Shown here piece after piece: positions 214 through 29,833 of a stretch of DNA of 37,180 bases; the stretch's first letter is position 1; every line of letters starts with the position of its first letter. The translations under genes and the position numbers were made by a program. Source of the stretch: Bacteroidaceae bacterium (GTDB taxonomy: Bacteria; Bacteroidota; Bacteroidia; Bacteroidales; Bacteroidaceae); the NCBI GenBank assembly GCA_017427185.1, contig JAFRTJ010000016.1:1-37180 (forward strand), given 5' to 3'. The notes under the pieces were generated by a model, which saw only the letters and a list, made by a program, of their open reading frames with translations, did not search any database and had not been told where the DNA came from.

Positions 214-2223
214 CTACAGCTCGTACTCGAGCATGACGAAACTATAGGGAGCCACATCGAGGGTGAATCGTCGCTGGGCCTTAACGTCAGAGCGCTGGGG
301 AGCGATGGGTTGAGCCTCGAAATTGTTTTCGTCGTCAGGATTGCCTGAAAGAACGGTTTTCTTTGCCATGTCCTTCAGCTTGAAACGCGAAAGATTGATG
401 TTGGCTCGCTTGGTTTCAGCTCCTGCGTTGCAAAGCTTGACGAAAAGACGACGCTCTTTGACGTTGAGGACCACTGACTGGCCGTAGTGAACTCCCTCCT
501 GCGGCTGTTCCACGTTTTTGGCATCACCTTCGAAATGGACACAGTCGCCGTAATAATACTGTCCAGCCGACTGCCCGAACATCTGCTGAACATAATAACT
601 GCATGTAAGTATGGGACGTTCGTTGTCGAAGTAGATGAGGTCAGGATTCCAGTTTGTAGCCTCTTTGCGTGCAAAGAGTGGAGCATAGGAAGTCATGCAG
701 ACAACATCGCCATTGCGCTCCACATGCAACAGGTAAAGTCCCTCTGCGAGAGCATCGATGAGTTTCTTGTCCTTAGAAGCATATTCACCCAGATAGACCT
801 TTGTCTTGCGGTCGCGTGGATAGCTGTCGTACTGACGGCTGCGCAGGAAGTAGTCGCGCGGTTCATAGTAGTGCTCGTCCATGATGGGCATGCCCAACTC
901 ATCGGCCAAGCGCCATCCATTCTCGTAGTCAGGATTTCCCGCATGTGAGCCAGGACCTGCCGTGCCCACAATAACAATCTCAGGATGGGCTTCCATTACC
1001 TTTTTGTATATATAGCGGAAACGCTCCTCAAATTCAGGAGAAATCTTTTCTTCGTTGCCAAGTCCAAGGTACTTCAATCCAAAAGGAGCCGGATGGCCTG
1101 CCTCTGCACGCATCTTAGCCCACTTGTTGGTGGCTGGATCGCCATTCGCCCAATCAATGAGATCGAGCGCATCCTGTACCCATTCGTCCATTTCGCTCAT
1201 GGGTACCACGTCTTGTGCCTGTCCGCGCATACCCCAGCCTCCATTGGTGCCCTGACAGGACACGCCACATGGCAAGATGGGTACAGGCTGCATGCCTACG
1301 TCCTCGCAGAACTGGAAGTACTCGTAGTAACCAAGTCCCATTGACTGATGGTAGCCCCAAGTGTTCTTGAGCGGGCGACGCTCATGACGAGGTCCAAGAG
1401 TCGTTTTCCAACGATATGTGTTCCAGAATCCGTCGCCACCTCCATGAACAACACAGCCTCCAGGGAAGCGCATGAACTTAGGCTTCAGGTCTGCCAATGC
1501 CTGAGCGAGATCCTTGCGAAGTCCATGACCATTGTAAGTGTCTGCAGGCATGAGTGATACGGCATCGATGTCAACACTGCCCACGTTGAGTACGAGGATG
1601 TGGAGCAATGCGTTTTTGGAAGCCTCGGAAGGTGTCAGAACCGCTGTATGCTCTTTCCATTGCTTTCCATCGACATTAAACGTGGCATCAGCCAACAATT
1701 TGGGAGACTTCCCCCACCCTTGCGGCTCAACGAGCGCCACACGTACCTGCTTGGCAACTCCCTCAACGTTGCGCAGGAAAGCCTTGAAATCATACTTTGC
1801 ACCAGCCTGAAGGCAGAAACCGTCAAAGCCATCATTCTGGATGCCGAAACCTGTCCAGCCATCGAAGTCATAGTAATGGCCAACGCGTTCCACATGCAGG
1901 CGCATATAGTTGGGATTATTGGGATGGAGAGGCGCATCCATTCGCGTTTCCAGATAACCCAGAGAATGACCAGGACGAATCAGGCGCCAAGCTGTGCCTG
2001 CACCCCATCCATCACGCTCCGTTGGATTGTACTCAAACGAACCGTTCTGCACGAGGTCGGCATAAAGTCCACCATCGGCTGCAGAGCTGATGTCCTCGAA
2101 GAAAATACCAATAAGTTCATCGCTGATAGCCTTACCGCCAGAAGGAGCCTTCATTGGACGACTGGCACTAAGACATGTCGCAACCACACATAGGAATACA
2201 GTCAAAAGATTTCGGTTAATCAT
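214..2223 (-). CDS. Alpha-L-arabinofuranosidase, GH51 family, secreted
   Basis: Predicted retaining GH51 enzyme that removes terminal alpha-L-arabinofuranosyl groups from arabinan or arabinoxylan. Residues 1-20 form a signal peptide, so it acts in the periplasm or outside. A carbohydrate-binding-like segment (about 60-225) precedes the TIM barrel. The acid/base Glu391 sits in GLGNEE and the nucleophile Glu480 in YLGEYAS. The C-terminal beta domain is complete, ending in a VMLEYEL-type strand. At 669 residues it has the length usual for Bacteroidota GH51 proteins with this N-terminal module. It starts only 13 bp after the MATE gene stop, so it probably belongs to the same transcript as the peptide synthetase. 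Its metabolic link to that pathway is not obvious; it may be a passenger gene. Family assignment is strong, exact substrate is inference. Confidence 0.93.
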   Translation of the reverse strand: MINRNLLTVFLCVVATCLSASRPMKAPSGGKAISDELIGIFFEDISSAADGGLYADLVQNGSFEYNPTERDGWGAGTAWRLIRPGHSLGYLETRMDAPLHPNNPNYMRLHVERVGHYYDFDGWTGFGIQNDGFDGFCLQAGAKYDFKAFLRNVEGVAKQVRVALVEPQGWGKSPKLLADATFNVDGKQWKEHTAVLTPSEASKNALLHILVLNVGSVDIDAVSLMPADTYNGHGLRKDLAQALADLKPKFMRFPGGCVVHGGGDGFWNTYRWKTTLGPRHERRPLKNTWGYHQSMGLGYYEYFQFCEDVGMQPVPILPCGVSCQGTNGGWGMRGQAQDVVPMSEMDEWVQDALDLIDWANGDPATNKWAKMRAEAGHPAPFGLKYLGLGNEEKISPEFEERFRYIYKKVMEAHPEIVIVGTAGPGSHAGNPDYENGWRLADELGMPIMDEHYYEPRDYFLRSRQYDSYPRDRKTKVYLGEYASKDKKLIDALAEGLYLLHVERNGDVVCMTSYAPLFARKEATNWNPDLIYFDNERPILTCSYYVQQMFGQSAGQYYYGDCVHFEGDAKNVEQPQEGVHYGQSVVLNVKERRLFVKLCNAGAETKRANINLSRFKLKDMAKKTVLSGNPDDENNFEAQPIAPQRSDVKAQRRFTLDVAPYSFVMLEYEL

Positions 2224-2236
2224 AAGTCGTAAGAAA

Positions 2237-3550
2237 TTATAAATTGATTTGTAGTTTAAGTTTTATATGACAAAAATAATGAATGAGACCTATAGCCAAT
2301 GCCTCGAGGATATAGGCCCAAAGGTAGCTGTACCACAAGTAATGGGGAGCCCATTGAGAGACAACCCACAACACTGGAATAACGGTCAGCGAGAGGGCTA
2401 ACGATATGAACAACGCCATGCGGTGTTGGCCATAGAGCTTGTAGACAATCATCAGCACATATATGTAGCAGAAAGGAACGAAACTGAGGGAGAAGATGCG
2501 AAATGCACGACTCGTCTCAGCAATCATCGCCTCGTCTGTGGCACCAAAAAGCTGGGCTATAAACGAGGGGAATATCCACACAACTACACACGTCGCAGCC
2601 ATTGAGATTGTGATAAAGCGGAAGGCACGCCGGAGCAGATCACGGAATCCTATATCGTCGGCCTTACCCACATAAACGGCACCCAACGACTGCAGAGTCT
2701 GGCATGTACCAGATAGAAAGAGATTATAGAGCTGAAGCAGATTCATGCACACAGCAAAGACAAAGATGCCCAAACGACCAGCAGTAGACAGCACAATGGA
2801 GTTGGCTGAAAGCAAAAGTAATGTCAAGCAAATGGAAGCAAGTGCAAGGGGCGCACCCTGGGAGAGGATGCGACGCCATGAGGACAATATTCCATCGATG
2901 TTAAGAAGTGGAACAAGCCTACGGTTTGATGGCAACCGCCAATGACTGAGAAGGATGGCAATGCCTACAACATGACCTGCGATAGTGGCTGCCGACGAAC
3001 CAGCGATGCCCCAACCCAAAAGCTGTATGAAGACCACGTCCAAACATAGGTTAAGAGCATTGTCGATAATCACAGCCAAGGAAACGAGGCGTGGGCTCCC
3101 ATCAACACCTACCATCGTGGAGAGACCCCACATGAGGATGTATGCTGGCGCACCAAGCAAAAGAATCCGCATATAGTCGAAAGCCATCGGACGAAGCTGA
3201 TCGTTGCTGCATAGCATGTGCGCTAATTCCGAAGTGAAAAGCAGACCACCAAAGATAGTAATGAGGACACCTATGCCAGCACTAAGTCCAAGGGAACGTG
3301 TGAACATACGTCGTGCTTCAACTGAATCTTTCTTGCCCAGCGCATAACCAACGAGCATACCCGCACCAGCGTTAATGAGCAAATGTAAAGTGAAGATGAA
3401 CTGCACAACAGGTTTCGAAAGATTGATGGCACTGACACCATCTTCGCTTATCAGGTTGCCAACGATGATGCCATCGACAACATTGCCAAGACAACCCGAC
3501 AAAGCGACGAAGATGTATGCCCAAAGATAGCTGTAGAATGAAGTTTTCAT
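2237..3550 (-). CDS. MATE-family multidrug/metabolite efflux transporter
   Basis: A polytopic inner-membrane protein of 437 residues with the twelve-helix pattern of MATE transporters. The N-terminal part has the family signature around VVDGIIVGNLISEDGVSA and a second pseudo-repeat half begins near residue 230. MATE proteins exchange Na+ or H+ for small organic compounds. The ATG lies 3 bp after the stop codon of the peptide synthetase gene, so the two are almost certainly co-transcribed and translationally coupled. The natural inference is that it exports the peptide product across the inner membrane or gives self-protection. Substrate is not deducible from sequence. Confidence 0.9.
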   Translation of the reverse strand: MKTSFYSYLWAYIFVALSGCLGNVVDGIIVGNLISEDGVSAINLSKPVVQFIFTLHLLINAGAGMLVGYALGKKDSVEARRMFTRSLGLSAGIGVLITIFGGLLFTSELAHMLCSNDQLRPMAFDYMRILLLGAPAYILMWGLSTMVGVDGSPRLVSLAVIIDNALNLCLDVVFIQLLGWGIAGSSAATIAGHVVGIAILLSHWRLPSNRRLVPLLNIDGILSSWRRILSQGAPLALASICLTLLLLSANSIVLSTAGRLGIFVFAVCMNLLQLYNLFLSGTCQTLQSLGAVYVGKADDIGFRDLLRRAFRFITISMAATCVVVWIFPSFIAQLFGATDEAMIAETSRAFRIFSLSFVPFCYIYVLMIVYKLYGQHRMALFISLALSLTVIPVLWVVSQWAPHYLWYSYLWAYILEALAIGLIHYFCHIKLKLQINL

Positions 3551-3553
3551 CGA

Positions 3554-6500
3554 TTATTCAAAGAATCCGAAACCACCGATAGCGGTAAGCATACGTTCAA
3601 CATAATCCCATGACGTAGGCGACCACGCAAAGCCCAGACGATAGAGAACTTGTGTCGTGTAGTCATTGTCACGTGCAACATCTGTAGTCTTCTGACCGTG
3701 AGCCATATCCTGATAGGCAAGAAGACTTGACATCTGACGAGCCTTCTGGGGATCACTCTTGGCCTCTTCCATGACAGCAGAGAACTCCTCTTGTTCCACG
3801 AAACGAACACCCATGTTTGCACCTTGATTGCCCGTCTTCAGTTTTTCTCCAACGTTGGTTAGCCCTTGGAGTACATCTCCCAGGAACTGAGTATGGATAT
3901 TGTAAGGATGGAAGACACAGCAAGCTTTCGGCGTAGTAGCCAACAAGAGAATAGCCGCAGCCACTTCATTGATGGGCGAGAACTCCACACGTTTGTTGCG
4001 CATAGCATACGGGCAGCAGCCAAGCATGTTGTACACTTTGATACGCCCCATGAACGAGTTGGTCGAGAAGTTGGCTTGGAACTCGCCATCGGTAGAACGA
4101 GCGGCGAGATTACCTACACGCATAATCTTTGCACTCAAGCCATGCAAGGCAACGGCATCCAGAATCAAACGCTCAGCCATAAACTTGGAATAGATGTACT
4201 TATTGCCAAGATACTGGCCCATATAGAGACGCTGTTCTGTGAAGACATCCTCTTTCGTCTCACCTGCCCAGAGTCCGCGAGTGCTAGCTGTTGAGATATG
4301 AACAAGCCTTGCACCTGTACGCAAGCAATACTCAACGCAACGTTTTGCGCCACCAATGTTCACGTCTTCAATCTCAGTTCCCTCGCTGAAATGTTTAACG
4401 ACCGCAGCACAGTTGATGACGGTATCAATCGAAAGTCCTTCTGCAAAGTCACTGGTGACATCACCAAGCACAATGTGCAGGCGTGATCCGAAGTAATCCT
4501 TGAAAGAATCAGCGAAATAGTAATAAAGAAGAGTGCGCAGGCGACGCTCTGCGGCTTCTTCTGTCTTACCACGCACAAGGCAATAGATGTGCGATGCATC
4601 AGAATCTATAAGCTCGCGCAGGATATGAATGCCCAAATACCCTGTGGCACCTGTCAATAACACGTTGCCCAACGATTGTCTTTCACCACTACGGAAAGCA
4701 GTAAGTGTATTTGCAGCAAGTGTATTGTTGATGGACGTATAGTCAAAAGAATTTACTTCATCAGGCTCATTGCTACCATCCTCTCCTGTGATTAAGCGAG
4801 CCAAGGCACGCGGAGTAGGATTGGCAAAAACATCGCCATAGGCCACATGCAGATTAGCCTTGTCGGCCTCGATGATGACGCGTGTGACAACAAGTGAAGT
4901 TCCACCCAATTCAAAGAAGTTGTCTGTGGCCCCAACCTTATCCATCTGCAAGATATCAGCAAAAATGTCGCAGAAGGTACGCTCTGTAGCATTGGCGGGT
5001 GCCTCATAAGCTGATGTGACAGCCAACTGCGGTTCAGGAAGTGCCTTGACATCTGTCTTGCCGTTGGGCGTCATAGGCATGGATGACAATTGTAAATAGG
5101 CAGTGGGCACCATGTATTGCGTAAGACTCTTCGATATTTCAGCTTTCAAAGCATCTGGTGCAATCTCATGGTCAGCTGTGTAATATGCACACAAATGCTC
5201 CTTGCCGCCCAACTTGCGAATGAGGATGACAACTTTCTCAATACCTTTTACCTTCAGCATGACATTCTCTATCTCACCCAGTTCTATGCGCAACCCTCGT
5301 AGCTTGATTTGATGGTCTGTGCGACCAAGAATGACCACATCGCCATCGGGCAACCAGCGAGCATAGTCACCTGAACGGTAGATACGAGTGCCATGGTAGT
5401 CAATGAAACGCTCACGAGTCATTTCGTCAAGATTGTTGTAACCGCGCGCTACACCACGACCACCGATATACAACTCTCCTACTACACCAACAGGCAGTTC
5501 ATTGCCATCGCTATCAACAACAAACTCGCACACGTTCAGCTGTGGCCGACCTACGGTGACCATCTCTGCATGTGTCAGTTCCTTATTGTTCGAGGCAACA
5601 GTAATTTCTGTAGGACCATAACAATTAAAGATACGCGCATTTGTCACACTACGCATTTGAGCAAGTAATTGGTCAGAGAACTTCTCTCCTCCTGCACGAC
5701 AGATTCTCACTTTCGAGATGGCTTGACAAAAGTCGTCGCTAGTGAGCCATGTTTGCCAACGCGAAGGCGTTCCTGAAACCATATTGATATTCTGCTGTTT
5801 TATGAGATGAGCTAAATCAAGTGGGTTGTTAGCCTGTTCCTCAGTCGCAACAACAAGAGTCTTGCCATTGAAGTAAGCCATACCTATATCCTGCAGAGCA
5901 GCATCAAAAGAGATTGTAGTGACACTAAGAATGCGATCAGCATCGGTAAACACAGCGTTGGCAAACACATTGGCAGGATGACCGTAGAGATAGTTACAAA
6001 TACCTTCGTGACGAAGCATTACGCCCTTCGGCCGTCCTGTGGAACCTGACGTATATATCAAATAGGCAAGATCATCGGGAGTAATCTCATCGTTAGTGAG
6101 GGGAACTTTCGTCTCCTGAGCAATCAGTGTCTCTACATCAATTGCCTTATCAGCAGGTACGCTATCAAGACGGTCAGCCGTAGTGATGATAAATCGTGCC
6201 TCGCTGTCCTCCAAGATGAGCCGAACGCGGTCGGCTGGATACTCAGGATCACAGGGTATATATGCGGCACCAGCTTTCAGCACACCGAAAAGCGAGAGAA
6301 TCAAGCGACTGGTACGAGGAAGAAGGAGTGCTACACGATCCCTAGCGGCAACACCTCGACTGCGCAAAGCAAATGCAATACGGTCAGTAAGTTGATCCAT
6401 CTGGCTATAGGTATAGGTAGCATCGATGGCAACCAATGCTTCTTTTTCTGGTTGCTGTTCAGCAAAATGATGAATACATTCATGGAAGAATTGGAATGGA

Positions 6501-9500
6501 GCATTGCCAGTAGCTGTCTGACGCAGACTTGCAAGTTCTTTCTCCTGATTATCGCTGACAATGGAAAGAGTTCTGACTCGAGCCTGAGACTGGGTCACCA
6601 TCCGTTCAGCAACAGCAACAATACTTTCTGCTAAAGCCTGACCAAGGCGGGCACTATAAAGTGAATCATCGTATTGCACGACCACACCTCGTGATTCAAT
6701 CTTGATATTAATCTTGAACTTGGGCACATTCAGTTCCAACAACTCCTGACCAACAGGTTTGCCTCCAACTGTATAATCTGAGAGAACACCCACCTGATAT
6801 GCGTAAGCGATGGCAGGTCGGAAACCATAATCGGTAGCAATGCGAGCAAAAGGATAGTCCTCATGACAGAGTGTCTGGTCGAAAGTCTCACTTGTTTGAC
6901 GCAAGAAATCGATTACACTTACATCATTGATACTTAGCCCGAGAGCTAATGTGTTGACAAACATTCCTACTGTATCAGCTATCTTCAGGTTGGATCGGCC
7001 ACTGCTGACAGTACAGAGATAAACGTCACGATTGTTAGTGTAACGCGAAACAACATAAGCTGTGGCTGCCAGGAAAAGATGAGCAGGCGTAATTTCCTGC
7101 TGTCGGCAGAACGCAGCAATGTGATCAAAGTCGGGCTTGCAGACAACTTCACCGATAAAACCTTGCTGGTCAGTTTTAGGCATGTCAGCAGGTATCTCAC
7201 TGGCGCCCTCACATGTCTGCAAACGCTCTGCAAAGAACTGCTGGGCGACACGGAAAGCATCCGTTTCCTCTGCAGCCTGTTGGTCTGCAACAAAATTCAG
7301 ATAGGTGTAGGACTCACGCTCAATGGGAAGACCTTCTAGCGCACCATTTATCTGATGGATAAGCAGATCTGCGGAGCCGCCATCAAAGATGAGGTGGTGA
7401 ACATCAAGCAGAAGATAGGTTCCAATCTCTGTTGACACAACCTCCAAACGATAAAGGGGTGCTTTCTGCAGGTTGAAAGGCCTTACAAAATCGTTCTTGT
7501 AGAGAGCAAGCTGCTGTTCTGTCATCCCAGTAATGGGAACTTCAACAGCTACTGCACCTTCAGTAGTCTGTACAATCTGGTCACCCTCTGTGGTGAAATG
7601 CACGTGCATTTCCGGATGACTCTCCACAACTTGCTTCACAACTGCAGCCAATCGCTCCGCTTCAATATCTGAGGGATAAGAAAGAAGATACGGAATGTTG
7701 TAAATAGTGGATGTGGGATCTTTCAAACATTCGAAGTATACACCCGTTTGAGCATAAGACAAGGGTACAAACAGCAAAGGTTCTCCACCATTCCCTGCCA
7801 GAGCTTGCCTAGCATCAGTCTTCCCTTGAGGAGAAATATTTCCTGTTGAATCATCCTTGTGGCAAAGGAAGGACGACAGGATTGCGTTTTCAATACTCTG
7901 AAGCGTACCAGTCTTGACGAGTGTCTTCGAATCAAGTGTCACACCATAGCGTTTGTTCACCTGAACAGCCAGTTTAATGGCTGAGATAGAAGTCAATCCT
8001 GCATAGCCAAGTATTGTAGTAATGCCGAAGTCCTTTGTATTGACGATGTTAGCAATAAGTTCATGAAGTTCCTCTTCAAGCACATTCATGGGAGCGTTAT
8101 TCTCTTCAATGACGGCAACTTTCTTCTCTGGCTTAGGGAGGGCACGTTTGTTCACCTTCTGGTTTTGATTTAAGGGAATGGCATCAATCTGCATGGTGAC
8201 AGCTGGTACCATATAAGGAGGCTTTTCATCGAGAATAAACTGATTGAGAGCATCTATATCGATAGCCTCATCACTAACAATATATGCTGCAATAAACTTG
8301 CCACCGCCCTCATCGTCGAAAGCTTGCACAGTCGCATCCTTAATACCAGGGAACTCGCGGATGACACCCTCTACTTCCTTCAGTTCAATACGGAAACCTC
8401 GAATCTTGACCTGTCCGTCACGGCGCCCTACGAATTGGATATCACCCGTAGGCAGATATCGAACGATGTCGCCAGTTCGATAAATACGGGCATATTTCCT
8501 GCAGTCTGATTCTGTGTCATATTCATTAAGGAATGGATTTGTTATGTAGACTTCAGCCGTCTTTTCAGGACGGTTGAGGTATCCACGACTGACCTGCGGT
8601 CCACTGACCCACAATTCTCCTGCTGCACCTACAGGCATGCGGTGTCCCTGTGGGTCAACAATATATAGCCGGAGATTGTCAAGAGAACGGCCGATGGGAA
8701 TCTCCTTCATTTTGCGGTCAACGTGATAGGCTGTAATAAAGACAGTGCATTCCGTAGGACCGTAGACATTATAGAAATTATAATTCACAGGTGGCGTAAG
8801 GGATGCGAGCTTTTCTCCCCCTGTGGACAGATAATGCAAGGAGTGGTTATCGATGCTTGTAGCAAACTGATAGCCCACCTGTGTAGTCATAAACGAATGC
8901 GTGATACCATTCTGCTCAAAATAGTCGTTCAAAGCCACAAGATCAAGTCTCAATTCCTCAGGCACAATATATACGCATGCACCACACGTCAGAGTTGGAT
9001 ATAGGTCCATCATGCAGGCATCGAAACCATAGCTTGCATACGCTGCCACACGATGCTCGGCTTGCAGACCATAGAAACGTTGATACCAGTCACAGAATGC
9101 GACGAGATTGGCATGTGTAAGTTGACATCCCTTAGGAATGCCCGTAGAACCAGAAGTGTAGAGCAGAATGAACAGGTTGTTTGGTGAAATTGATGGTTGA
9201 CTGTATAGTCGATCATTCCCTATCATCAAGTCTCCATTTTCAATTGGCAGTACCTCTCCCTCGTATTCGTCAACCAGAGGACGCAACTCTTTGTCAGCAA
9301 TCAACAAACGGGCACCAGCATCTTTCATCATGAAATTCAAACGTTCCTTCGGATAACTCGGGTCAAGGGGCTGATAGGCACAACCTGCCTTGAGAATTCC
9401 CATCGATACTATAGCCATCCACTCACAACGCGGAATAAGTACGGAGACGACATCTTCTGTACCTAAACCTTTTGAGATAATGAAAGCAGCTATGCGGTCA

Positions 9501-10900
9501 CTTATCTCGTCAACTTCAGCATAGGTGTATCGCTTGTCCTTGTAGACAACAGCAAGGTTTCCTGGTGTGGCAGCAGCCTGTCGACGGAAAAGAGACACGA
9601 TGGTTTGCGTGTCGTCATAGTCAACATCGGTTTGATTGAAATTATCGAGAGTCTGCTTCTGTGTATCAGTAGCGATATCTATATCATGCAGGAATGTTTG
9701 GGTAAGAAAACCCTCCACAATCGCCTCATAGCTCTCAAGGAACTGAGCGATGAGGGCAGCAGAATACTCATTCGCTTTGTATTCAGCCTTGACATAGTAA
9801 GAACCATCGTGAATGAAAGCTTTCAGATAAAGAGAAGCATCGAGGGTACTGTTACCAATGCGTACAGTCCGCATAGGGAGACCACCCATCTGTTCGTTGG
9901 CAAAAAGCATCCCATGCCATGCAAACATTGAATTGCTCTGAAGACCAAGGTCACTGACCATGTCACCATAACTGTATGCGTCGTGATCGCGGCAACCGCT
10001 CATCTGCTCCTGTGCTGAACGAAGATAATCGAGGACGCTAGTATCTGGTGTAAACTTGGCATATACAGGAAGCGTCTTTACAAACATACCAACGGTATGG
10101 CTAAGCGATTTGTCTTTGCGTCCATTGAAAACAGTGGTGAAAAGCGACTCCTGCTCATTGTTGTATTTAGCAAGGAGGTAAGCGTAGGAAGCCGTGAAGA
10201 GCGTGCTACGGAAGATGCCTGTACGGTGGCAGAAGTCATCGACGCGCTCCATCGGAACACATAAAACGCGCACGAGACTATCTTCAAGACGTTCTGTACC
10301 TTCAAGGTCAGGAAGAAGTTGTGTGAAGGTATCGGCACAATCAAAATGCTGAGCATACCAGCGTTTCCCTTCCTCAAATGCCTCTGTCTGTCTAATCTCA
10401 CGTTCTATCTGCACTTGTTGAGCCAGCGTACGTTGCTCCTGTTCAAGAACTTCACCACAATAGGCTCGGTCTATCTCATTCAGCATAAGGTTCATCGATG
10501 TTCCGTCAGCAATAAGATGATGGTAGTCAATGAAGAGATAGTAATTGACAGGAGTCCTGAACAGACGGATTCGGAACAAACGGTCTTCATAAATATTGAA
10601 GGGTTTCACCAACTGCGACTGAACTTGGTCAATATCATCAATGTCTTCTATGGTAAGGGTAAAGGTTTCTTCGTCATCGACTGTCTGAATAGGTTCACCG
10701 TTTTCATCAGTACTTATGCGAGTGAAAAGTGTGGGATGAGCTGCTACAGCCATTTCTATAGCTTCACGCAAATGATCAGCATTGAGATTGCGGTCTAATA
10801 TATAAATATAAGGTAAATTGTAATAGACCTCTCCAATATGATGGACACATTCAACATAGAGGCCATATTGCGATTGAAGTAAGGGAGAAGAGGTTTTCAT
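3554..10900 (-). CDS. Nonribosomal peptide synthetase, two modules with terminal reductase (C-A-T-C-A-T-R)
   Basis: A 2448-residue cytoplasmic assembly line. C1 spans about 1-425 with HHLIADG at 127-133. A1 spans about 432-925 with an intact A3 loop (YTSGSTGIPKG) near 577 and the A10 lysine near 913. T1 has its carrier serine at Ser971 in GLTSISA. C2 spans about 1040-1465 with HHLIFDG at 1168-1174. A2 spans about 1467-1955 with YTSGSTGRPKG near 1615 and Lys1948. T2 has Ser2002 in LGGTSL. The terminal reductase (about 2075-2448) has the NAD(P)H loop TGATGYLG near 2080 and YxxxK at Tyr2235/Lys2239. By eye the A-domain pockets read DAMFSGVVFK (A1) and DAQSCACVAK (A2); Asp235 is kept in both, so alpha-amino acids are expected. 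The reductase implies release as an aldehyde or alcohol; the N-terminal C domain suggests an acylated first residue. It needs a phosphopantetheinyl transferase, which is not in this window. Confidence 0.95.
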   Translation of the reverse strand: MKTSSPLLQSQYGLYVECVHHIGEVYYNLPYIYILDRNLNADHLREAIEMAVAAHPTLFTRISTDENGEPIQTVDDEETFTLTIEDIDDIDQVQSQLVKPFNIYEDRLFRIRLFRTPVNYYLFIDYHHLIADGTSMNLMLNEIDRAYCGEVLEQEQRTLAQQVQIEREIRQTEAFEEGKRWYAQHFDCADTFTQLLPDLEGTERLEDSLVRVLCVPMERVDDFCHRTGIFRSTLFTASYAYLLAKYNNEQESLFTTVFNGRKDKSLSHTVGMFVKTLPVYAKFTPDTSVLDYLRSAQEQMSGCRDHDAYSYGDMVSDLGLQSNSMFAWHGMLFANEQMGGLPMRTVRIGNSTLDASLYLKAFIHDGSYYVKAEYKANEYSAALIAQFLESYEAIVEGFLTQTFLHDIDIATDTQKQTLDNFNQTDVDYDDTQTIVSLFRRQAAATPGNLAVVYKDKRYTYAEVDEISDRIAAFIISKGLGTEDVVSVLIPRCEWMAIVSMGILKAGCAYQPLDPSYPKERLNFMMKDAGARLLIADKELRPLVDEYEGEVLPIENGDLMIGNDRLYSQPSISPNNLFILLYTSGSTGIPKGCQLTHANLVAFCDWYQRFYGLQAEHRVAAYASYGFDACMMDLYPTLTCGACVYIVPEELRLDLVALNDYFEQNGITHSFMTTQVGYQFATSIDNHSLHYLSTGGEKLASLTPPVNYNFYNVYGPTECTVFITAYHVDRKMKEIPIGRSLDNLRLYIVDPQGHRMPVGAAGELWVSGPQVSRGYLNRPEKTAEVYITNPFLNEYDTESDCRKYARIYRTGDIVRYLPTGDIQFVGRRDGQVKIRGFRIELKEVEGVIREFPGIKDATVQAFDDEGGGKFIAAYIVSDEAIDIDALNQFILDEKPPYMVPAVTMQIDAIPLNQNQKVNKRALPKPEKKVAVIEENNAPMNVLEEELHELIANIVNTKDFGITTILGYAGLTSISAIKLAVQVNKRYGVTLDSKTLVKTGTLQSIENAILSSFLCHKDDSTGNISPQGKTDARQALAGNGGEPLLFVPLSYAQTGVYFECLKDPTSTIYNIPYLLSYPSDIEAERLAAVVKQVVESHPEMHVHFTTEGDQIVQTTEGAVAVEVPITGMTEQQLALYKNDFVRPFNLQKAPLYRLEVVSTEIGTYLLLDVHHLIFDGGSADLLIHQINGALEGLPIERESYTYLNFVADQQAAEETDAFRVAQQFFAERLQTCEGASEIPADMPKTDQQGFIGEVVCKPDFDHIAAFCRQQEITPAHLFLAATAYVVSRYTNNRDVYLCTVSSGRSNLKIADTVGMFVNTLALGLSINDVSVIDFLRQTSETFDQTLCHEDYPFARIATDYGFRPAIAYAYQVGVLSDYTVGGKPVGQELLELNVPKFKINIKIESRGVVVQYDDSLYSARLGQALAESIVAVAERMVTQSQARVRTLSIVSDNQEKELASLRQTATGNAPFQFFHECIHHFAEQQPEKEALVAIDATYTYSQMDQLTDRIAFALRSRGVAARDRVALLLPRTSRLILSLFGVLKAGAAYIPCDPEYPADRVRLILEDSEARFIITTADRLDSVPADKAIDVETLIAQETKVPLTNDEITPDDLAYLIYTSGSTGRPKGVMLRHEGICNYLYGHPANVFANAVFTDADRILSVTTISFDAALQDIGMAYFNGKTLVVATEEQANNPLDLAHLIKQQNINMVSGTPSRWQTWLTSDDFCQAISKVRICRAGGEKFSDQLLAQMRSVTNARIFNCYGPTEITVASNNKELTHAEMVTVGRPQLNVCEFVVDSDGNELPVGVVGELYIGGRGVARGYNNLDEMTRERFIDYHGTRIYRSGDYARWLPDGDVVILGRTDHQIKLRGLRIELGEIENVMLKVKGIEKVVILIRKLGGKEHLCAYYTADHEIAPDALKAEISKSLTQYMVPTAYLQLSSMPMTPNGKTDVKALPEPQLAVTSAYEAPANATERTFCDIFADILQMDKVGATDNFFELGGTSLVVTRVIIEADKANLHVAYGDVFANPTPRALARLITGEDGSNEPDEVNSFDYTSINNTLAANTLTAFRSGERQSLGNVLLTGATGYLGIHILRELIDSDASHIYCLVRGKTEEAAERRLRTLLYYYFADSFKDYFGSRLHIVLGDVTSDFAEGLSIDTVINCAAVVKHFSEGTEIEDVNIGGAKRCVEYCLRTGARLVHISTASTRGLWAGETKEDVFTEQRLYMGQYLGNKYIYSKFMAERLILDAVALHGLSAKIMRVGNLAARSTDGEFQANFSTNSFMGRIKVYNMLGCCPYAMRNKRVEFSPINEVAAAILLLATTPKACCVFHPYNIHTQFLGDVLQGLTNVGEKLKTGNQGANMGVRFVEQEEFSAVMEEAKSDPQKARQMSSLLAYQDMAHGQKTTDVARDNDYTTQVLYRLGFAWSPTSWDYVERMLTAIGGFGFFE

Positions 10901-10946
10901 ATATTCGTGTTATTTGCTTAATTGAGTTTATTCAATTGTAATGTAC

Positions 10947-12275
10947 TCACCATTTTGTCGTGAAGAGGTGTGGAGTGATGTTCAACGAAAGCCATATCCA
11001 TTGCAGGCGTCCGTTGTCAGAGGCACGCTTGAGGGCTTTCATGGTATTGGAGCCCACCATCAGAGAATATCCTGCCGAGAGTTTAGCGTCGTGCATGAAA
11101 CTGTAAGTGGCCAAAAGTTCCAATTCATGACCCAATGCACGGTCCAAGCCTTTCAAATTAACGGTCGTAGCCAAATAATGGTATGCAGCACTCGTGCTCA
11201 CTTTTTTTATAGGCGAGAAATCAACGCCAGCATAAATGTTCTGTAAACCTGGCGAGAAACCATCAATGAAGGCACTGATATAGAAGAAATCCATAGCACC
11301 ATAGAACTGATGATTAGATCCGTAGAGGGTACTGAAACCCTTCTGCTTCTTGCGGTGTACCAAGCCAATCTGACCTTGTCCACGAACATAATAGAATTCA
11401 TCACCACTGAGATAATCGTAACCCGTCATGAGGCGCAGGGCATTCGTAATCTTATACCGTACCTTGCCGCTGGCCATCCAAGCCTCGATGGGCATATTGA
11501 CATCGCTACGGCCGAACTGACGGTAATAAGAACCTTCCAACAGCCAACGATTCGGATTGTACCGGGCATAGAGTCCAGCCAACTGTTGGAAACGCGTCAC
11601 GCGATACGTCACATCCTGAGTACCCAGATTCATGAATATGAGTGAGGCTCCCAACTTCGTGTGTGGCACATCGTAGTGATACCAAAGTGTCTGCATCGAC
11701 TTGTAGGGCTGTGCGCCATTTGCATAGAACGTTCCGCCGTTGGTGTTCTCAGCATTCTGATTGAAACCCAAGATAAGGTGTGCCTTATGCCCATGGCCTT
11801 CATATCCAAACTTTCCCACGTCATGCGAGGCGGCAGCCATTGCCCAATCGTTACTGCCTATGATACGTTCGTCATCATACGAAAGCTCCTGCCTTCCCAG
11901 TCTCGCGAACATTCCGTTTTTAGCATTCAACTGAACCCATGTCTCATAGAGGTTCATTGAACCTTTGCCAGCTTGTCCCCATACACCTGAGTGCTGGAAC
12001 GATATCTTGGCATCCAGATAAGGGCGCGAGTAACCTGCGATTAAACGAGTACGTTCCATAAAGAAAGCTGCGAAATCATCGTCCAGCTCGTTTTCGGGCA
12101 ACCCTCCTAAACGCAACTCTCCACGAGATAAGAATTGTGCGTCGAGTGTCAATTGGTTCTTCTTGGAGACGCTGTCAGCATTAATGGTTTCTGAGGTCTG
12201 CGCCAAGGGTCGCATCGGACACAGGGCAAAAACCACGAAACAACTGATATACAGAAAAGCTTGGTTAGACTTCAT
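10947..12275 (-). CDS. Outer-membrane beta-barrel, alginate-export-like porin
   Basis: A 442-residue protein starting at the ATG at 12275, chosen because it opens directly on a signal peptide (MKSNQAFLYISCFVVFALC, cleavage after a LAQ). An in-frame start 39 bp upstream would bury the signal. The rest is alternating beta strands with aromatic girdles and the motif LGRQELSYDDERIIGSNDWA, typical of the alginate-export (AlgE-like) barrel family found in many Bacteroidota without alginate genes. It ends in an aromatic-rich barrel strand before TTKW. The synthetase gene starts 46 bp downstream and the STAS gene ends 56 bp upstream. In this operon it is a candidate outer-membrane exit (or entry) pore for the peptide product. 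Family call fairly firm, role is inference. Confidence 0.8.
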   Translation of the reverse strand: MKSNQAFLYISCFVVFALCPMRPLAQTSETINADSVSKKNQLTLDAQFLSRGELRLGGLPENELDDDFAAFFMERTRLIAGYSRPYLDAKISFQHSGVWGQAGKGSMNLYETWVQLNAKNGMFARLGRQELSYDDERIIGSNDWAMAAASHDVGKFGYEGHGHKAHLILGFNQNAENTNGGTFYANGAQPYKSMQTLWYHYDVPHTKLGASLIFMNLGTQDVTYRVTRFQQLAGLYARYNPNRWLLEGSYYRQFGRSDVNMPIEAWMASGKVRYKITNALRLMTGYDYLSGDEFYYVRGQGQIGLVHRKKQKGFSTLYGSNHQFYGAMDFFYISAFIDGFSPGLQNIYAGVDFSPIKKVSTSAAYHYLATTVNLKGLDRALGHELELLATYSFMHDAKLSAGYSLMVGSNTMKALKRASDNGRLQWIWLSLNITPHLFTTKW

Positions 12276-12331
12276 GGGGAGAAATGGTGTTGAAGGCATA
12301 CTATCAATAAGCATGCGCCTGTTTGTTGATG

Positions 12332-12634
12332 TTATTCAAAATCAAAGAGAGTGAGGAAGCCTGTCAGTTTAAACACATTCTTGATATCATCGTTGACATC
12401 TTTGAGAGTCACTTTACGTCCGTTGGCTTTCGCATTTTTAAGCAGGCTGACGAGGATGCGCAGGCCACTGGATGCAATGTAATCCAGCTGGGCGCAATCA
12501 AGGAGAATGTCACGCTTATCATCGACGAACAAAGGCTTCAGGGCATTCTCTACATCCTGTGCTGCCGCTGTGTCGAGTTCACCTTCCAGGACGGCCACGA
12601 TGCGCTCATCCTGTTCATGGATTGTTGTTTTCAT
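12332..12634 (-). CDS. STAS-domain protein, anti-sigma-factor-antagonist-like
   Basis: A 100-residue single STAS domain of the SpoIIAA/RsbV type. The conserved switch motif is at residues 52-58 (YIASSGL); one of Ser55/Ser56 is the expected phosphorylation site. In known partner-switching systems an RsbW-type kinase phosphorylates this serine and a PP2C phosphatase removes it. Here both activities are encoded by the gene immediately upstream, whose stop codon lies 20 bp inside this reading frame, so the pair is translationally coupled. Bacteroidota usually lack sigma-B/sigma-F, so the output partner is unknown. Lengths and motif fit the family well. Confidence 0.92.
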   Translation of the reverse strand: MKTTIHEQDERIVAVLEGELDTAAAQDVENALKPLFVDDKRDILLDCAQLDYIASSGLRILVSLLKNAKANGRKVTLKDVNDDIKNVFKLTGFLTLFDFE

Positions 12635-14894
12635 TGTTGTTGAATTTTATTGGATTATCTTTTAGTTTTTTCTTGAGAGTCAAAATGTTGAGGCCGTCTT
12701 CTCGTTCATAGTTGAGGCTGTCCATCAGCTCACGCATGAGGTGGATACCCAGCCCACCAATGGGACGTTCTTCTGCCGAAAGACTCGTGTCAACCTCTGC
12801 TGCCTCAGTAGGATCAAATGGCACACCATTGTCCATGATTCTAATATAGAGGCATTGATCCTCTTCTGTGGATGTGCGGACATCAGCTTCCACCGTCACA
12901 GTTCCCTCAGTTTCTCGAGGATAGGCATAAGTGATTACGTTCACCACCGCTTCTTCGATGGCAAGTCTCAGGTTCGATGCCTCGCTTTTCTTCATGCCGA
13001 TGCTTTCTGTGAAAGCTTTCACGAAACGGCTGAGAGCTGTTATCTCGCTGATATCATTCTTTAAGGTGATTGATTCGTGCAGAAGAGTGTCCTCCTTCTT
13101 TGGCATATAATGTACGGCCAGCATCGTCAGGTCGTCACTTTGTTCTGCCCCACTAACGAACTGACGAACACAATCGTTCATGTTCTTCAGCAGTTGCTCA
13201 GCCGTCAGCTTCGTGGTGGCATAATTATCGAGAATATCTTTCAACCTTTTTTCTCCAAAGAAAGCACGCTGTGGATCACGTGCCTCAGTAAGTCCGTCAG
13301 TATAAAGAAACAGCATTGCACCAGATGTCAACATTTCTTCCTGGGCCTGATAGACGAAGTCATCAAAGAGGCCAATGGGAATGTTTGCCTTGACTGGCAG
13401 TTCGCGGGCACTGCCTCCCTCCAATACGAAGGGGCGGTCATGACCAGCGTTGCAATATTTCAAACGTCCTGTAGGCAAGTCGAGGACGCCCACAAACAGC
13501 GTGACGAACATGTTCGACTCATTGCCTGCACAGGAGGCTCCGTTCAGTGCCTTCATGATGCGCGCAGGATTCGTCTCATGGGCGGATGCTGAACGGAAGA
13601 AGGCATGTGTCACAGCCATAACAAGCGCTGACGGAACTCCTTTGCCTGAAACGTCACCAATACAGAAGAATAGCTTCTCGTCACGGACAAGAAAGTCAAA
13701 AAGATCGCCTCCTACCTCTTTAGCCGGTTCGAGCATACCATAGAGGTCAAGATCGTGGCGTTCAGGGAAAGGAGGAAAGTGCTCAGGGAGCATGTCTTTC
13801 TGGATATTGCGTGCAATGCGCAGTTCTCCATTGATGCGCTCTTTTTCCATATCGGCTTGCTTCAAGCGACGAAAGCTTCCTGCCGATCGATATATAATGT
13901 ATCCCAGCAGGAGCAAACCCAACAAAGAGAGCAACAAGATATTCCAACGCATTCGATTCAGCTTACCGTATACCTCATGGTCATAATATACTACAGCAAT
14001 CTGCCAATGAGGTTCGCCCTTCATGTTGGCATAAAAGATAGTAGCATCGCCATTCTTGGCATCATCCATATCCAGCACCGTAGTGCGTCCTGTCTGGCTA
14101 AGCTGGCGAGCCTTTGTGCTGTCGTTGATCAGAGCCACTACTGTATTCAAATCCGTCCCCTTCTCATGCGGACCTGCTATAAGGCGGCCGCTTTCAGTCA
14201 ACAGGATATCAAATGAAGAGGGATACATGTGGCGGTTGTTAAGTGTGTCGCCTAGCCAATTCAGGCTTACGTCGGCTCCTAAAACTGCCACCGTCTGCCC
14301 GTCAGCATCATCCAGAGGCATCGAGACGGTAGTGATCAGTCCCAGTCCTCCCTTCTCATCAATGTATGGGGCGCTCCAGTAGACATCACCCTGCGCTAGC
14401 GCCTGCACGTAGAATTCCATCTGTGTGTAATCGTGATCGGCATCCGCAAGTTGCATGAAACTTATCGAGTCGCCACGACACAAAGCAAAAGGTTCGTACA
14501 GACGTTCGTCCGTTGAGTAATAGTAAGGTTTGAAGGCGATGCCTCCACTCATAATATTGGGGTGAGCACGCACAAGGCGACCAGCCACTGGGTACAACGA
14601 TTCGTGGTCAGCCAAGTGGTGACGGGCGTCATAGGCATGATCGCGCAGGGAAGTCTCAATAGCATTTAGAATCCCCTTGACTATGACTGCCTTCAGTCGC
14701 AGCTCACTTTCGGCATGATGCTCTAGCTCTTGAGCCAGCAAACCGCGTGTATACCAATACTGTACTGCGGATATCAGCTCCAACAGTAAAGCAGCGACAA
14801 GGATAATACCCAAGTTGGGAAACTTTCTTCGGAAAGTATCCAATCTTGAACGAACAATATCTTGAGTAACATTGAAGAACTTCAACATTAGCAT
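12615..14894 (-). CDS. Membrane sensor with PP2C (SpoIIE/RsbU) phosphatase fused to RsbW-like kinase domain
   Basis: A 759-residue inner-membrane signalling protein. TM1 is about 27-48 and TM2 about 315-338. The segment between them is a Cache-like extracytoplasmic sensor. After a short coiled linker (RINGELRIARNIQKDMLP) comes a PP2C domain with metal-binding acidic motifs EVGGDLFDF (near 395), GDVSGKGVPSA (near 415) and YTDGLTEARD. The C-terminal 140 residues form a GHKL ATPase of the anti-sigma kinase type: N-box AIEEAVVNVITYAY near 650 and G-box IGGLGIHLMREL near 714. Fusing phosphatase and kinase in one chain means it could both phosphorylate and dephosphorylate the adjacent STAS protein according to the external signal. 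It is first in the synthetase operon. An alternative start two codons later is possible. Confidence 0.92.
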   Translation of the reverse strand: MLMLKFFNVTQDIVRSRLDTFRRKFPNLGIILVAALLLELISAVQYWYTRGLLAQELEHHAESELRLKAVIVKGILNAIETSLRDHAYDARHHLADHESLYPVAGRLVRAHPNIMSGGIAFKPYYYSTDERLYEPFALCRGDSISFMQLADADHDYTQMEFYVQALAQGDVYWSAPYIDEKGGLGLITTVSMPLDDADGQTVAVLGADVSLNWLGDTLNNRHMYPSSFDILLTESGRLIAGPHEKGTDLNTVVALINDSTKARQLSQTGRTTVLDMDDAKNGDATIFYANMKGEPHWQIAVVYYDHEVYGKLNRMRWNILLLSLLGLLLLGYIIYRSAGSFRRLKQADMEKERINGELRIARNIQKDMLPEHFPPFPERHDLDLYGMLEPAKEVGGDLFDFLVRDEKLFFCIGDVSGKGVPSALVMAVTHAFFRSASAHETNPARIMKALNGASCAGNESNMFVTLFVGVLDLPTGRLKYCNAGHDRPFVLEGGSARELPVKANIPIGLFDDFVYQAQEEMLTSGAMLFLYTDGLTEARDPQRAFFGEKRLKDILDNYATTKLTAEQLLKNMNDCVRQFVSGAEQSDDLTMLAVHYMPKKEDTLLHESITLKNDISEITALSRFVKAFTESIGMKKSEASNLRLAIEEAVVNVITYAYPRETEGTVTVEADVRTSTEEDQCLYIRIMDNGVPFDPTEAAEVDTSLSAEERPIGGLGIHLMRELMDSLNYEREDGLNILTLKKKLKDNPIKFNNNENNNP

Positions 14895-14934
14895 TATCCT
14901 CTTTTCAAAGTCACATTGTACTTACATCACGTTA

Positions 14935-14965
14935 CAAAATTAAGGAAAAAAGAATAAAGAAACAA
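14935..14965 (-). promoter_or_regulatory. Bacteroidota-type promoter of the synthetase operon
   Basis: On the minus strand a TTG (14963-14965) is followed after 20 bp by TAATTTTG (14935-14942), matching the Bacteroidota consensus for the primary sigma factor. Predicted transcription starts near 14928, leaving a leader of about 33 nt before the ATG at 14894. No other good match was seen upstream of any of the next five genes. Confidence 0.75.
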
Positions 14966-15258
14966 TTTTTCTTGAATTTTTTCGAAGGACTATAATCACA
15001 ATACTGACAATACTGAGGCAGCAGCATCATTTCTGCCTATATTTCATGAGGGAAGAATTGATAATTATAGCCTGGCATTGGAAAGAGTTGACTCAAAAAA
15101 CACAACACGTTGAAACCGCAGACACAACACGTTGAAACTGCAAACACAACACGTTCTTCCTCCCCTTTCAACACGTTGTCTTTTTACAGCTCTCTCGTTC
15201 CGTCATTTTCTATGTTTTGCCGTCGTTCACGATGAAATGCCACAAAGCTTTCGTTCTG
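14966..15258. other. Intergenic region upstream of the operon promoter
   Basis: About 290 bp with no gene. It contains the 22-bp-period repeat array described separately (15081-15178) and otherwise AT-rich sequence. The array lies about 150-240 bp upstream of the predicted start of the synthetase operon and just past the 3' end of the unknown gene at 15259. Confidence 0.5.
15103..15178. repeat. 22-bp-period array of CAACACGTTG, four units
   Basis: The core CAACACGTT(G/C) begins at 15103, 15125, 15147 and 15169, exactly 22 bp apart, with 12 variable bases between cores. A degenerate fifth unit ending in GTTGA lies 22 bp further left at 15081. The core is a near-palindrome (CAAC-AC-GTTG). Units 1 and 2 share the flank GAAAC; unit 4 has the mirrored flank TTT before and TC after. 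The same spacing recurs at 29730-29783 and 35747-35800. Confidence 0.85.
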
Positions 15259-28847: not shown

Positions 28848-28968
28848 CAAACAAAATTCGAGATAGTGAGCGCAAGAACAATTTTTTTCCTCGAAGAGAT
28901 GCGTTTTTCTGGTTTTCACGTGTGCGCCTGCCCATTCTGACGTGTGAGCTGCGCAAATTTTCAATAAG

Positions 28969-29041
28969 AGCGGAAAACGAGACTCGAACTCGCGACCCCA
29001 ACCTTGGCAAGGTTGTGCTCTACCAACTGAGCTATTTCCGC
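28969..29041 (-). tRNA. tRNA-Gly (anticodon GCC), copy 2
   Basis: 73-nt cloverleaf; acceptor GCGGAAA, anticodon arm CAACC-TTGCCAA-GGTTG, T loop TTCGAGT. Identical in sequence to the copy at 29426-29498. It is the last tRNA of the four-gene cluster. Confidence 0.96.
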
Positions 29042-29199
29042 ATAAAGACAAAAAAAGCGAGATTCTGGCATCATTCACCGTTTTGTACTCGAAGATAAGT
29101 CTAGCACTCTATCGGTCAATGGAAATCCAGAACTCCGCAATTCTTGCGATTCTAACCTTTGCATTAGAATCTTATCGTATGCTGATTCTAATCGTGAGG
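29042..29199 (-). other. Inter-tRNA spacer with mutually exclusive hairpins
   Basis: No gene. GATTCTAA at 29148-29155, TTAGAATC at 29164-29171 and GATTCTAA at 29184-29191 allow two alternative 8-bp perfect stems that share the central arm. They could mark a processing site or terminator/attenuator between tRNA-Leu(GAG) and the last tRNA-Gly; no poly-U tract follows. Confidence 0.5.
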
Positions 29200-29281
29200 T
29201 GAAGAGGAGGAGACTCGAACTCCCACGCCTCGCGGCACTACCACCTCAAAGTAGCGCGTCTACCAATTCCGCCACCTCTCC
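29200..29281 (-). tRNA. tRNA-Leu (anticodon GAG)
   Basis: 82-nt class II tRNA with long variable arm. Acceptor GGAGAGG, anticodon arm CTACT-TTGAGGT-GGTAG giving GAG, T loop TTCGAGT, discriminator A. CCA not encoded. Confidence 0.94.
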
Positions 29282-29326
29282 AGCACGAATTAAAATCGAC
29301 ATTAAAAAGTCAAAAGCAGTATGTAG

Positions 29327-29408
29327 TGCCCAGAACAGGACTCGAACCTGCACACCTTTCGGCACACGCACCTGAAACGTGCGCGTCTACCAATTCCGCC
29401 ACCTGGGC
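29327..29408 (-). tRNA. tRNA-Leu (anticodon CAG)
   Basis: 82-nt class II tRNA. Acceptor GCCCAGG, anticodon arm CACGT-TTCAGGT-GCGTG giving CAG, long variable arm, T loop TTCGAGT, discriminator A. Confidence 0.94.
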
Positions 29409-29425
29409 AATCACTTTGATGAAAG

Positions 29426-29498
29426 AGCGGAAAACGAGACTCGAACTCGCGACCCCAACCTTGGCAAGGTTGTGCTCTACCAACTGAGCTATTTCCGC
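29426..29498 (-). tRNA. tRNA-Gly (anticodon GCC), copy 1
   Basis: 73-nt cloverleaf identical to the copy at 28969-29041, including the flanking G of the acceptor. First tRNA of the cluster, about 87 nt after the predicted transcription start. Confidence 0.96.
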
Positions 29499-29622: not shown

Positions 29623-29833
29623 ACAAATGGAAGAAAAAATTATTCGACTTTGTATGTATTGGCAGACTATACATTATAATATAAGGTAATAATGCGTTCA
29701 GAACTGCCCAACAGTCACGCCAGAAAAGACAACACGTTGAAACCGCAAAGACAACACGTTGAAATTGGAAAGACAACACGTTGAAATGAAGGAGGCGACG
29801 TGAGGACCCTTTTGAGCAGGGATGGAAAGGCAA
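29623..29833. other. Intergenic region between tRNA promoter and nspC
   Basis: About 210 bp without a gene. It is AT-rich up to 29700 and then carries the three-unit 22-bp array at 29730-29783, which begins 51 bp past the stop of the decarboxylase gene. Confidence 0.5.
29730..29783. repeat. 22-bp-period array of CAACACGTTG, three units
   Basis: Perfect cores CAACACGTTG start at 29730, 29752 and 29774, each preceded by GA and followed by AAA. The shared unit is GACAACACGTTGAAA. Spacers differ (CCGCAAA, TTGGAAA). A degenerate ACGTG lies at the next 22-bp step (29796). Confidence 0.88.

What the first reader, a model, noticed from the sequence alone, without database searches (positions are those of the whole stretch)
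214..14965. A self-contained six-gene operon: sensor phosphatase-kinase, STAS, outer-membrane barrel, reductase-type NRPS, MATE exporter, GH51
Six minus-strand genes follow one good promoter (14935-14965) with gaps of -20, 56, 46, 3 and 13 bp. This puts a partner-switching signal pair, a peptide synthetase, an inner-membrane exporter and a candidate outer-membrane pore on one transcript. I know of reductase-type NRPS clusters in gut bacteria, but not of one wired to a PP2C-kinase/STAS module and an alginate-export-like barrel. Seen: gene order, spacing, domains. Known: what each family does. Inferred: that they act as one sensing, synthesis and export system.
Basis: partly seen in the sequence, partly recalled or inferred. 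Interest (0 to 1): 0.85.

Follow-up and report, generated by a model that had tools for sequence, protein, structure and literature searches.

The report
Sensor-switched peptide-aldehyde gene cluster
Many gut Bacteroidales share a gene block in the same order (a predicted sensor, its predicted switch protein, a predicted outer-membrane barrel, a peptide synthetase and a predicted exporter) that likely makes and secretes a small peptide aldehyde in response to a signal that is still unknown.

Summary
Five form a conserved unit; GH51 does not belong. Among 80 loci with a related synthetase (best 80 of 581), 66 hold enough upstream DNA: STAS is in the same block in 62, the kinase in 58, the barrel in 54, the exact order kinase-STAS-barrel-synthetase in 49. 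MATE is in 60 of 71, a phosphopantetheinyl transferase (absent from the window's block) in 34 of 69, GH51 in 1 of 69. A Bacteroidetes-type promoter motif precedes the kinase in 41 of 57 loci (chance 7.3). The synthetase is C-A-T-C-A-T-reductase with active-site motifs kept: likely an N-acyl dipeptide aldehyde. The barrel model matches AlgE best; the sensor is a dCache fold. Of 20 more distant synthetase loci, 12 also have kinase or STAS nearby, 8 do not; one origin of the link is weakly rejected. No sigma factor was found on this contig, so what STAS acts on is unknown. My open-literature searches found no such switch-synthetase pairing in Bacteroidota. New variant of a known kind.

The parts
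14935..14965 (-). promoter-like site TTG-N20-TAATTTTG ahead of the kinase gene
   Evidence: sequence; the motif is enriched upstream of orthologous kinases, 41 of 57 for the -7 part and 16 of 57 for both parts; consensus recalled
12615..14894 (-). sensor phosphatase-kinase: dCache sensor, PP2C (SpoIIE) and HATPase_c_2 kinase domains
   Evidence: Pfam; motifs IGDVSGKG 57 of 60 and GGLGI 57 of 60 in orthologues; dCache model; in the block in 58 of 66 loci
12332..12634 (-). single-domain STAS switch protein, candidate phosphoserine Ser55
   Evidence: Pfam; aligns to TM1442, SpoIIAA and RsbV chains; IASSGL in 67 of 71; in the block in 62 of 66 loci
10947..12314 (-). AlgE-like outer-membrane barrel (start may be 12275)
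   Evidence: PF13372 45.9 bits; model pLDDT 79.9, Foldseek ranks 1-15 are AlgE entries; in the block in 54 of 66 loci
3554..10900 (-). C-A-T-C-A-T-reductase peptide synthetase
   Evidence: Pfam; carrier serines 74 of 74, HHxxxDG 71 of 74 (C1) and 74 of 74 (C2) in orthologues
2237..3550 (-). MATE-family exporter
   Evidence: PF01554 99.1 bits; in the block in 60 of 71 loci with enough downstream DNA
214..2223 (-). GH51 arabinofuranosidase-like gene: neighbour, possibly on the same transcript, not part of the conserved unit
   Evidence: Pfam; in the block in 1 of 69 loci

Best explanation
The five genes at 2237-14894 form a gene cluster whose order is kept in dozens of Bacteroidales species, and it likely makes an N-acylated dipeptide aldehyde and exports it through a predicted MATE pump and AlgE-like barrel when a predicted periplasmic sensor would shift the phosphorylation of its STAS switch protein. 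Shown: gene content, order, spacing, kept active-site motifs, and the promoter motif ahead of the first gene. Predicted by family or model: dCache sensing, phosphatase and kinase action on STAS Ser55, the barrel fold, the transport role of MATE. Inferred: C1 caps the first amino acid with an acyl group, the reductase releases an aldehyde that the cap keeps from cyclising, and the product leaves through the barrel. Not known: the signal, the exact building blocks, and the molecule that STAS acts on; I think it most likely that STAS controls the output of this same cluster, and by what step is open.
For: Order and co-occurrence: STAS 62, kinase 58, barrel 54 and exact KIN-STAS-OMP-NRPS 49 of 66; MATE 60 of 71; all five in exact order 39 of 61. 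Median gaps 21, 7, 30 and 17 bp. Promoter motif ahead of the kinase, near chance ahead of the other genes. Active-site motifs kept in synthetase, kinase and STAS. C1 is the least conserved synthetase domain (median identity 0.59 against 0.74-0.83 for A1, C2, A2 and R), which fits a variable acyl cap on a constant core. A PPTase, needed to arm such synthetases, is in the block in 34 of 69 relatives. Barrel fold AlgE-like, sensor dCache. 12 of 20 more distant synthetase loci also have kinase and/or STAS nearby. Acylated dipeptide aldehydes from gut NRPS clusters are documented (PMC8518294, passages).
Against: No product, expression or interaction data. Four of 66 loci lack STAS, eight lack the kinase and twelve lack the barrel in the block, so barrel and kinase are not indispensable. 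Eight of 20 more distant synthetase loci show neither kinase nor STAS, one of them on a truncated contig. The synthetase is far below the AusA cut-off (1120 against 2500 bits) and its A-domain codes match no substrate that I can name with confidence. Whether C1 adds an acyl group, and whether the reductase stops at the aldehyde, was not tested. The MATE and the barrel have no shown link to each other.
Confidence: 0.66

Rival explanations
1. The switch works in the classical way, in trans: STAS binds a separate RsbW-like protein (such as the 164-aa HATPase on contig C33), which in turn would hold a sigma factor encoded elsewhere; the cluster merely carries one of several inputs to that circuit.
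For: The genome has a second module on C33 with its own kinase, RsbW-like protein and STAS, and 20 Sigma70_r2 matches, one of them about 3.5 kb from the lone sensor phosphatase on C11.
Against: No sigma match on C49 or C33 among the 20; the conserved promoter motif fits the ordinary Bacteroidetes consensus; STAS keeps to the synthetase more closely than the kinase does (62 against 58 of 66). None of this excludes control in trans.
Confidence: 0.25
2. The kinase-STAS pair serves the barrel (for example uptake or envelope state) and the synthetase-exporter pair is an independent neighbour.
For: Kinase and barrel are absent together more often than expected (Fisher p 7.5e-6, not corrected for relatedness); elsewhere in the family STAS modules sit with transporters and without a synthetase.
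Against: Five loci keep kinase and STAS beside the synthetase with no barrel in the block (L031, L071, L079, L095, L108), four keep STAS directly before it without kinase or barrel in the block, and distant synthetases are also linked to the switch without a barrel match.
Confidence: 0.07
3. The product is a free cyclic pyrazinone-type compound like aureusimine, or an alcohol, rather than a capped aldehyde.
For: Best NCBIfam model is the aureusimine synthetase AusA; reductase release can lead to either (recalled).
Against: An extra N-terminal condensation domain with its HHxxxDG motif in 71 of 74; score far below the AusA cut-off.
Confidence: 0.2
4. Chance neighbours on one strand.
For: Holds for GH51 outside its closest relatives (1 of 69 loci).
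Against: For the other five the order is kept across many species while flanking genes differ.
Confidence: 0.02

Closest known systems
Gut dipeptide-aldehyde NRPS clusters: N-octanoyl-Met-Phe-H (BGC0001686) and ruminopeptin of Ruminococcus (passages of PMC8518294 and PMC12327764)
   Same: NRPS-made, acylated dipeptide aldehyde products are documented there; the two-module reductase layout seen here would give such a product (inference)
   Different: The passages name Clostridium and Ruminococcus sources and mention no partner-switching sensor or outer-membrane barrel; here the host is Bacteroidales, product untested
Aureusimine synthetase AusA (NCBIfam NF047350)
   Same: Best NCBIfam hit, 1120 bits
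   Different: Cut-off 2500 not reached; here an extra N-terminal condensation domain (that AusA lacks it is recalled)
Partner-switching modules RsbU/RsbV/RsbW and SpoIIAA, and SypE-SypA of Vibrio fischeri (passages of PMC8256260)
   Same: STAS protein with conserved serine, PP2C and serine-kinase domains; as in SypE both activities sit in one protein
   Different: Built into an NRPS operon, with a dCache sensor fused to both activities, and no sigma factor found on the contig
Pseudomonas aeruginosa alginate exporter AlgE
   Same: Pfam family above cut-off and best fold matches
   Different: About 13% identity in the fold alignment; neighbours are a peptide synthetase and a MATE gene, not polysaccharide synthesis genes
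SspH, a HATPase-family regulator of antibiotic synthesis in Streptomyces (PMC9137472, search listing only)
   Same: A HATPase-family regulator affecting natural-product output
   Different: Streptomyces; I saw only the listing and the opening of the abstract

Membership tests
Reductase-terminated dipeptide-aldehyde NRPS | Two modules ending in a thioester reductase | tested here: met
   C-A-T-C-A-T-R by Pfam; Rossmann motif G(A/S)TG(Y/F)LG in 74 of 74 and YIYSK in at least 66 of 74
Reductase-terminated dipeptide-aldehyde NRPS | Product is a dipeptide aldehyde | not testable with these tools
   needs chemistry
Aureusimine synthetase AusA | NCBIfam equivalog cut-off of 2500 bits | tested here: not met
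   1120.1 bits
Partner-switching module | STAS protein with the phosphorylatable serine | tested here: met
   IASSGL in 67 of 71, ISSSGL 3, IASSGM 1; aligns to SpoIIAA and RsbV chains
Partner-switching module | PP2C phosphatase and HATPase serine kinase with intact motifs | tested here: met
Partner-switching module | Phosphorylation and dephosphorylation of STAS by this pair | not testable with these tools
   needs biochemistry
Sigma-factor-releasing partner switch (RsbV/RsbW/SigB type) | Cognate sigma factor encoded alongside | tested here: not met
   20 Sigma70_r2 matches in the genome, none on contig C49; control in trans is not excluded
Alginate_exp / AlgE barrel family | Pfam cut-off and barrel fold | tested here: met
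   45.9 against 25.2 bits; Foldseek ranks 1-15 AlgE, TM-score 0.59-0.63 by query length
Alginate export system | Encoded with polysaccharide synthesis genes | tested here: not met
   neighbours are kinase, STAS, NRPS and MATE
Amino-acid-binding dCache (dCache_1AA) | Carboxylate-binding arginine two residues before the aromatic pair (R126 in PctA) | tested here: not met
   methionine 159 in the window, R in 14 of 46 aligned sensors; position matched by eye, motif residues from passages of PMC10104139
Amine-binding dCache (dCache_1AM) | Full amine motif | tested here: inconclusive
   aromatic pair F161/Y162 and D208 (46 of 46) present; the rest of the motif was not mapped

The most novel reading that the evidence does not exclude
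STAS docks directly on the peptide synthetase (or its export partner) and gates it after translation: a partner switch whose target is an assembly-line enzyme instead of a sigma factor, taken up by Bacteroidales synthetase clusters more than once. In its favour: STAS lies directly before the synthetase in four loci with neither kinase nor barrel in the block (L038, L048, L054, L094; in L038 and L094 a kinase relative lies some 7-9 kb upstream, in the other two none in the 10 kb held), the promoter motif looks housekeeping, no transcription factor is in the block, and a single origin of the kinase-NRPS link is weakly rejected (p-AU 0.025).
Probability: 0.16. Interest if true: 0.92.

Novelty: new variant of a known kind. 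Interest (0 to 1): 0.7.

Why it matters
If true, an environmental cue in the ruminant gut would be tied to secretion of a protease-inhibitor-type peptide by common Bacteroidales, through a partner switch without a visible sigma factor, and with a predicted path across both membranes (pump and barrel) on one operon. It makes two open questions testable: what single-domain STAS proteins control when no sigma factor is in sight, and how small peptides leave Bacteroidota cells. PMC8241843 (passages) counts 934 NRPS clusters in rumen Bacteroidaceae and reports Prevotella NRPS clusters among those more expressed in less feed-efficient steers; whether this cluster is one of them is not known.

Tried and rejected
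GH51 as part of the system: rejected (1 of 69 in the block). Generic promoter and terminator scan: 19 promoter-like sites against 23.7 in shuffles and 18 terminator-like against 13.7 (sd 4.0), not used. AusA-type synthetase: below cut-off. Substrates of the A domains: codes DAMFSGVVFK and DAQSCACVAK were read at positions recalled from GrsA; the nearest solved A1 is linear gramicidin synthetase LgrA, but I make no firm substrate call. Sensor ligand: amino-acid motif not met, amine motif not settled; the purine paper was opened but its motif was not tested. Distance correlations between genes (0.34-0.78) are not used as evidence, because species descent alone gives such values. Literature: (open-licence papers only, listings of the best hits) showed no synthetase with this switch in Bacteroidota; a negative of limited weight. 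Rows dropped: 6 kinase, 7 synthetase and 1 MATE orthologues outside 0.85-1.2 of the expected length; L125's kinase did not pass the profile step of the tree; two long-branched rows (L167, L127) were left out of the careful tree after the quick tree was seen.
Full report
What is there. The window is Bacteroidales (Rfam Bacteroidales small SRP). Six minus-strand ORFs lie at the stated places with the stated families.

Is it a unit? I placed the six proteins on them by tblastn, with two more families seen by clustering all ORFs: a PPTase (PF01648, 50.3 bits) and a ligase-like protein (AMP-binding below cut-off). A block means same strand with gaps under 600 bp. Of 66 loci with at least 4.6 kb upstream, STAS is in the block in 62, kinase in 58, barrel in 54; exact KIN-STAS-OMP-NRPS in 49; KIN-STAS-NRPS in 6, one of which (L103) has the barrel after MATE. 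Of 71 with at least 1.6 kb downstream, MATE is in 60. Of 69 with at least 2.6 kb downstream, PPTase is in 34, the ligase in 6, GH51 in 1. All five in exact order: 39 of 61 with enough DNA on both sides. Beyond these, one family (BipA-like by my reading of the sequence, no family search run) occurs in 11 of 80 loci and no other in more than 6. Median gaps are 21, 7, 30 and 17 bp. Rearranged orders exist (L061, L092, L103).

Loci that lack parts. No STAS in the block: L057, L096, L097, L098. No kinase: these four and L038, L048, L054, L094, which keep STAS directly before the synthetase; in L038 and L094 a kinase relative lies some 7-9 kb upstream. No barrel: 12. The STAS of these kinase-less loci keep IASSGL. 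Kinase and barrel are absent together more than expected (p 7.5e-6, not corrected for relatedness).

Promoter. Within 300 bp upstream of the kinase the -7 motif TAnnTTTG occurs in 41 of 57 loci (200 first-order resamplings: mean 7.3, sd 2.4, largest 15), the two-part motif in 16 (1.2, 1.0, 4). Ahead of STAS the counts are 7 and 3 of 68 (chance 3.1 and 0.5, so slightly above), of the barrel 3 and 0 of 60, of the synthetase 5 and 1 of 72, of MATE 2 and 1 of 65. The consensus is recalled, and related loci are not independent.

Synthetase. C-A-T-C-A-T-R. Carrier serines 74 of 74; HHxxxDG 71 of 74 (C1) and 74 of 74 (C2); reductase motifs kept in most. Median identity to the window by domain: C1 0.59, A1 0.78, C2 0.74, A2 0.83, R 0.81, which I read as a constant dipeptide core with a variable cap (inference). 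A1 codes vary around DAMFSG(V/G/L)(I/V)FK; A2 is DAQSCACVAK in 34, DAQSVACVAK in 22 and other codes in 18 of 74. The large protein search returned 2067 relatives at E <= 1e-100; of the 120 shown, the few named ones bear generic names.

Beyond the orthologues. Twenty further synthetase stretches of the same family, most of them more distant, were fetched (some may be species already among the 80). Kinase and/or STAS lie within about 5 kb in 12 (L119, L121-L125, L127-L130, L137, L138) and in none of L120, L126, L131-L136, of which L131 is a short contig. In a draw of 295 genomes of the order, 5 besides the window's own passed E <= 1e-150, all from other families; two of those five regions have a kinase relative nearby (L165, L167) and one (L168) is cut by its contig end. 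In a kinase tree of 45 rows (20 of 59 cassette kinases sampled; two long rows left out), the window, 19 cassette kinases and L121-L123 form one clade (support 96/90); the cassette kinase of L105 falls outside. Holding all 30 NRPS-linked kinases together is rejected at p-AU 0.025; the quick tree with the two long rows needed 4 label changes, the careful one 5, of which starred branches force 2. I read this as more than one uptake of the switch by synthetase clusters; support is modest and long branches remain.

Other uses of the switch. I picked 20 STAS loci away from listed synthetase matches, so no synthetase is expected there: none shows one, and 8 of 20 carry a transporter family of which two members were scanned and score as CitMHS with TrkA_C. 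In this family the switch thus also sits in operons with other membrane proteins.

Barrel. Model pLDDT 79.9, pTM 0.76, 19 strands of three or more residues; residues 332-341 and parts of the N-terminus are poorly modelled. Foldseek ranks 1-15 are AlgE entries, then other porins.

What is known. From passages: acylated dipeptide aldehydes come from gut NRPS clusters and inhibit proteases (PMC8518294); ruminopeptin is one (PMC12327764); single-domain STAS proteins act with anti-sigma factors or, like SypA, on an unknown target (PMC8256260); rumen genomes hold 5,346 NRPS clusters (PMC8241843). A term search inside PMC9248904, on Bacteroidetes natural products, gave no occurrence of STAS or Bacteroidales. 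The parts are known kinds; the combination, conserved and probably recurring, I did not find in the searches listed.

Verdict. What the unit makes and what STAS touches remain inferred.

Noticed in passing
window 15098-15155 and 29725-29787: Arrays of a 22-bp repeat with core ACAACACGTTGAAA, both beyond the 3' ends of minus-strand genes; the core occurs 103 times in the window's genome, often spaced 22 bp, against 0 for the reversed control. A 12-base core overlapping it was found in no relative's locus held at the time.
   Followed up: partly
L102, L033, L043, L046, L100, L075, L170: A ligase-like gene (about 450 aa) follows the synthetase in these relatives, the window's closest ones included (L102, L170, L033), and is absent from the window's block. 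It could supply the acyl cap.
   Followed up: partly
L139, L142, L144, L150, L151, L153, L154, L158: STAS modules lie beside a transporter family (two members scanned: CitMHS with TrkA_C), a second operon type for the same switch.
   Followed up: partly
L053, L089, L091, L108: Two synthetase genes lie in tandem in one block, in L053, L091 and L108 with MATE between them.
   Followed up: no
G000 contig C33 (L115 5738-9148): A second sensor phosphatase-kinase with a separate RsbW-like HATPase and STAS, downstream of an LptD-family gene; a possible partner of the window's STAS.
   Followed up: partly
window 28968-29498: Two tRNA-Gly(gcc) genes flank two tRNA-Leu genes (gag, cag).
   Followed up: no
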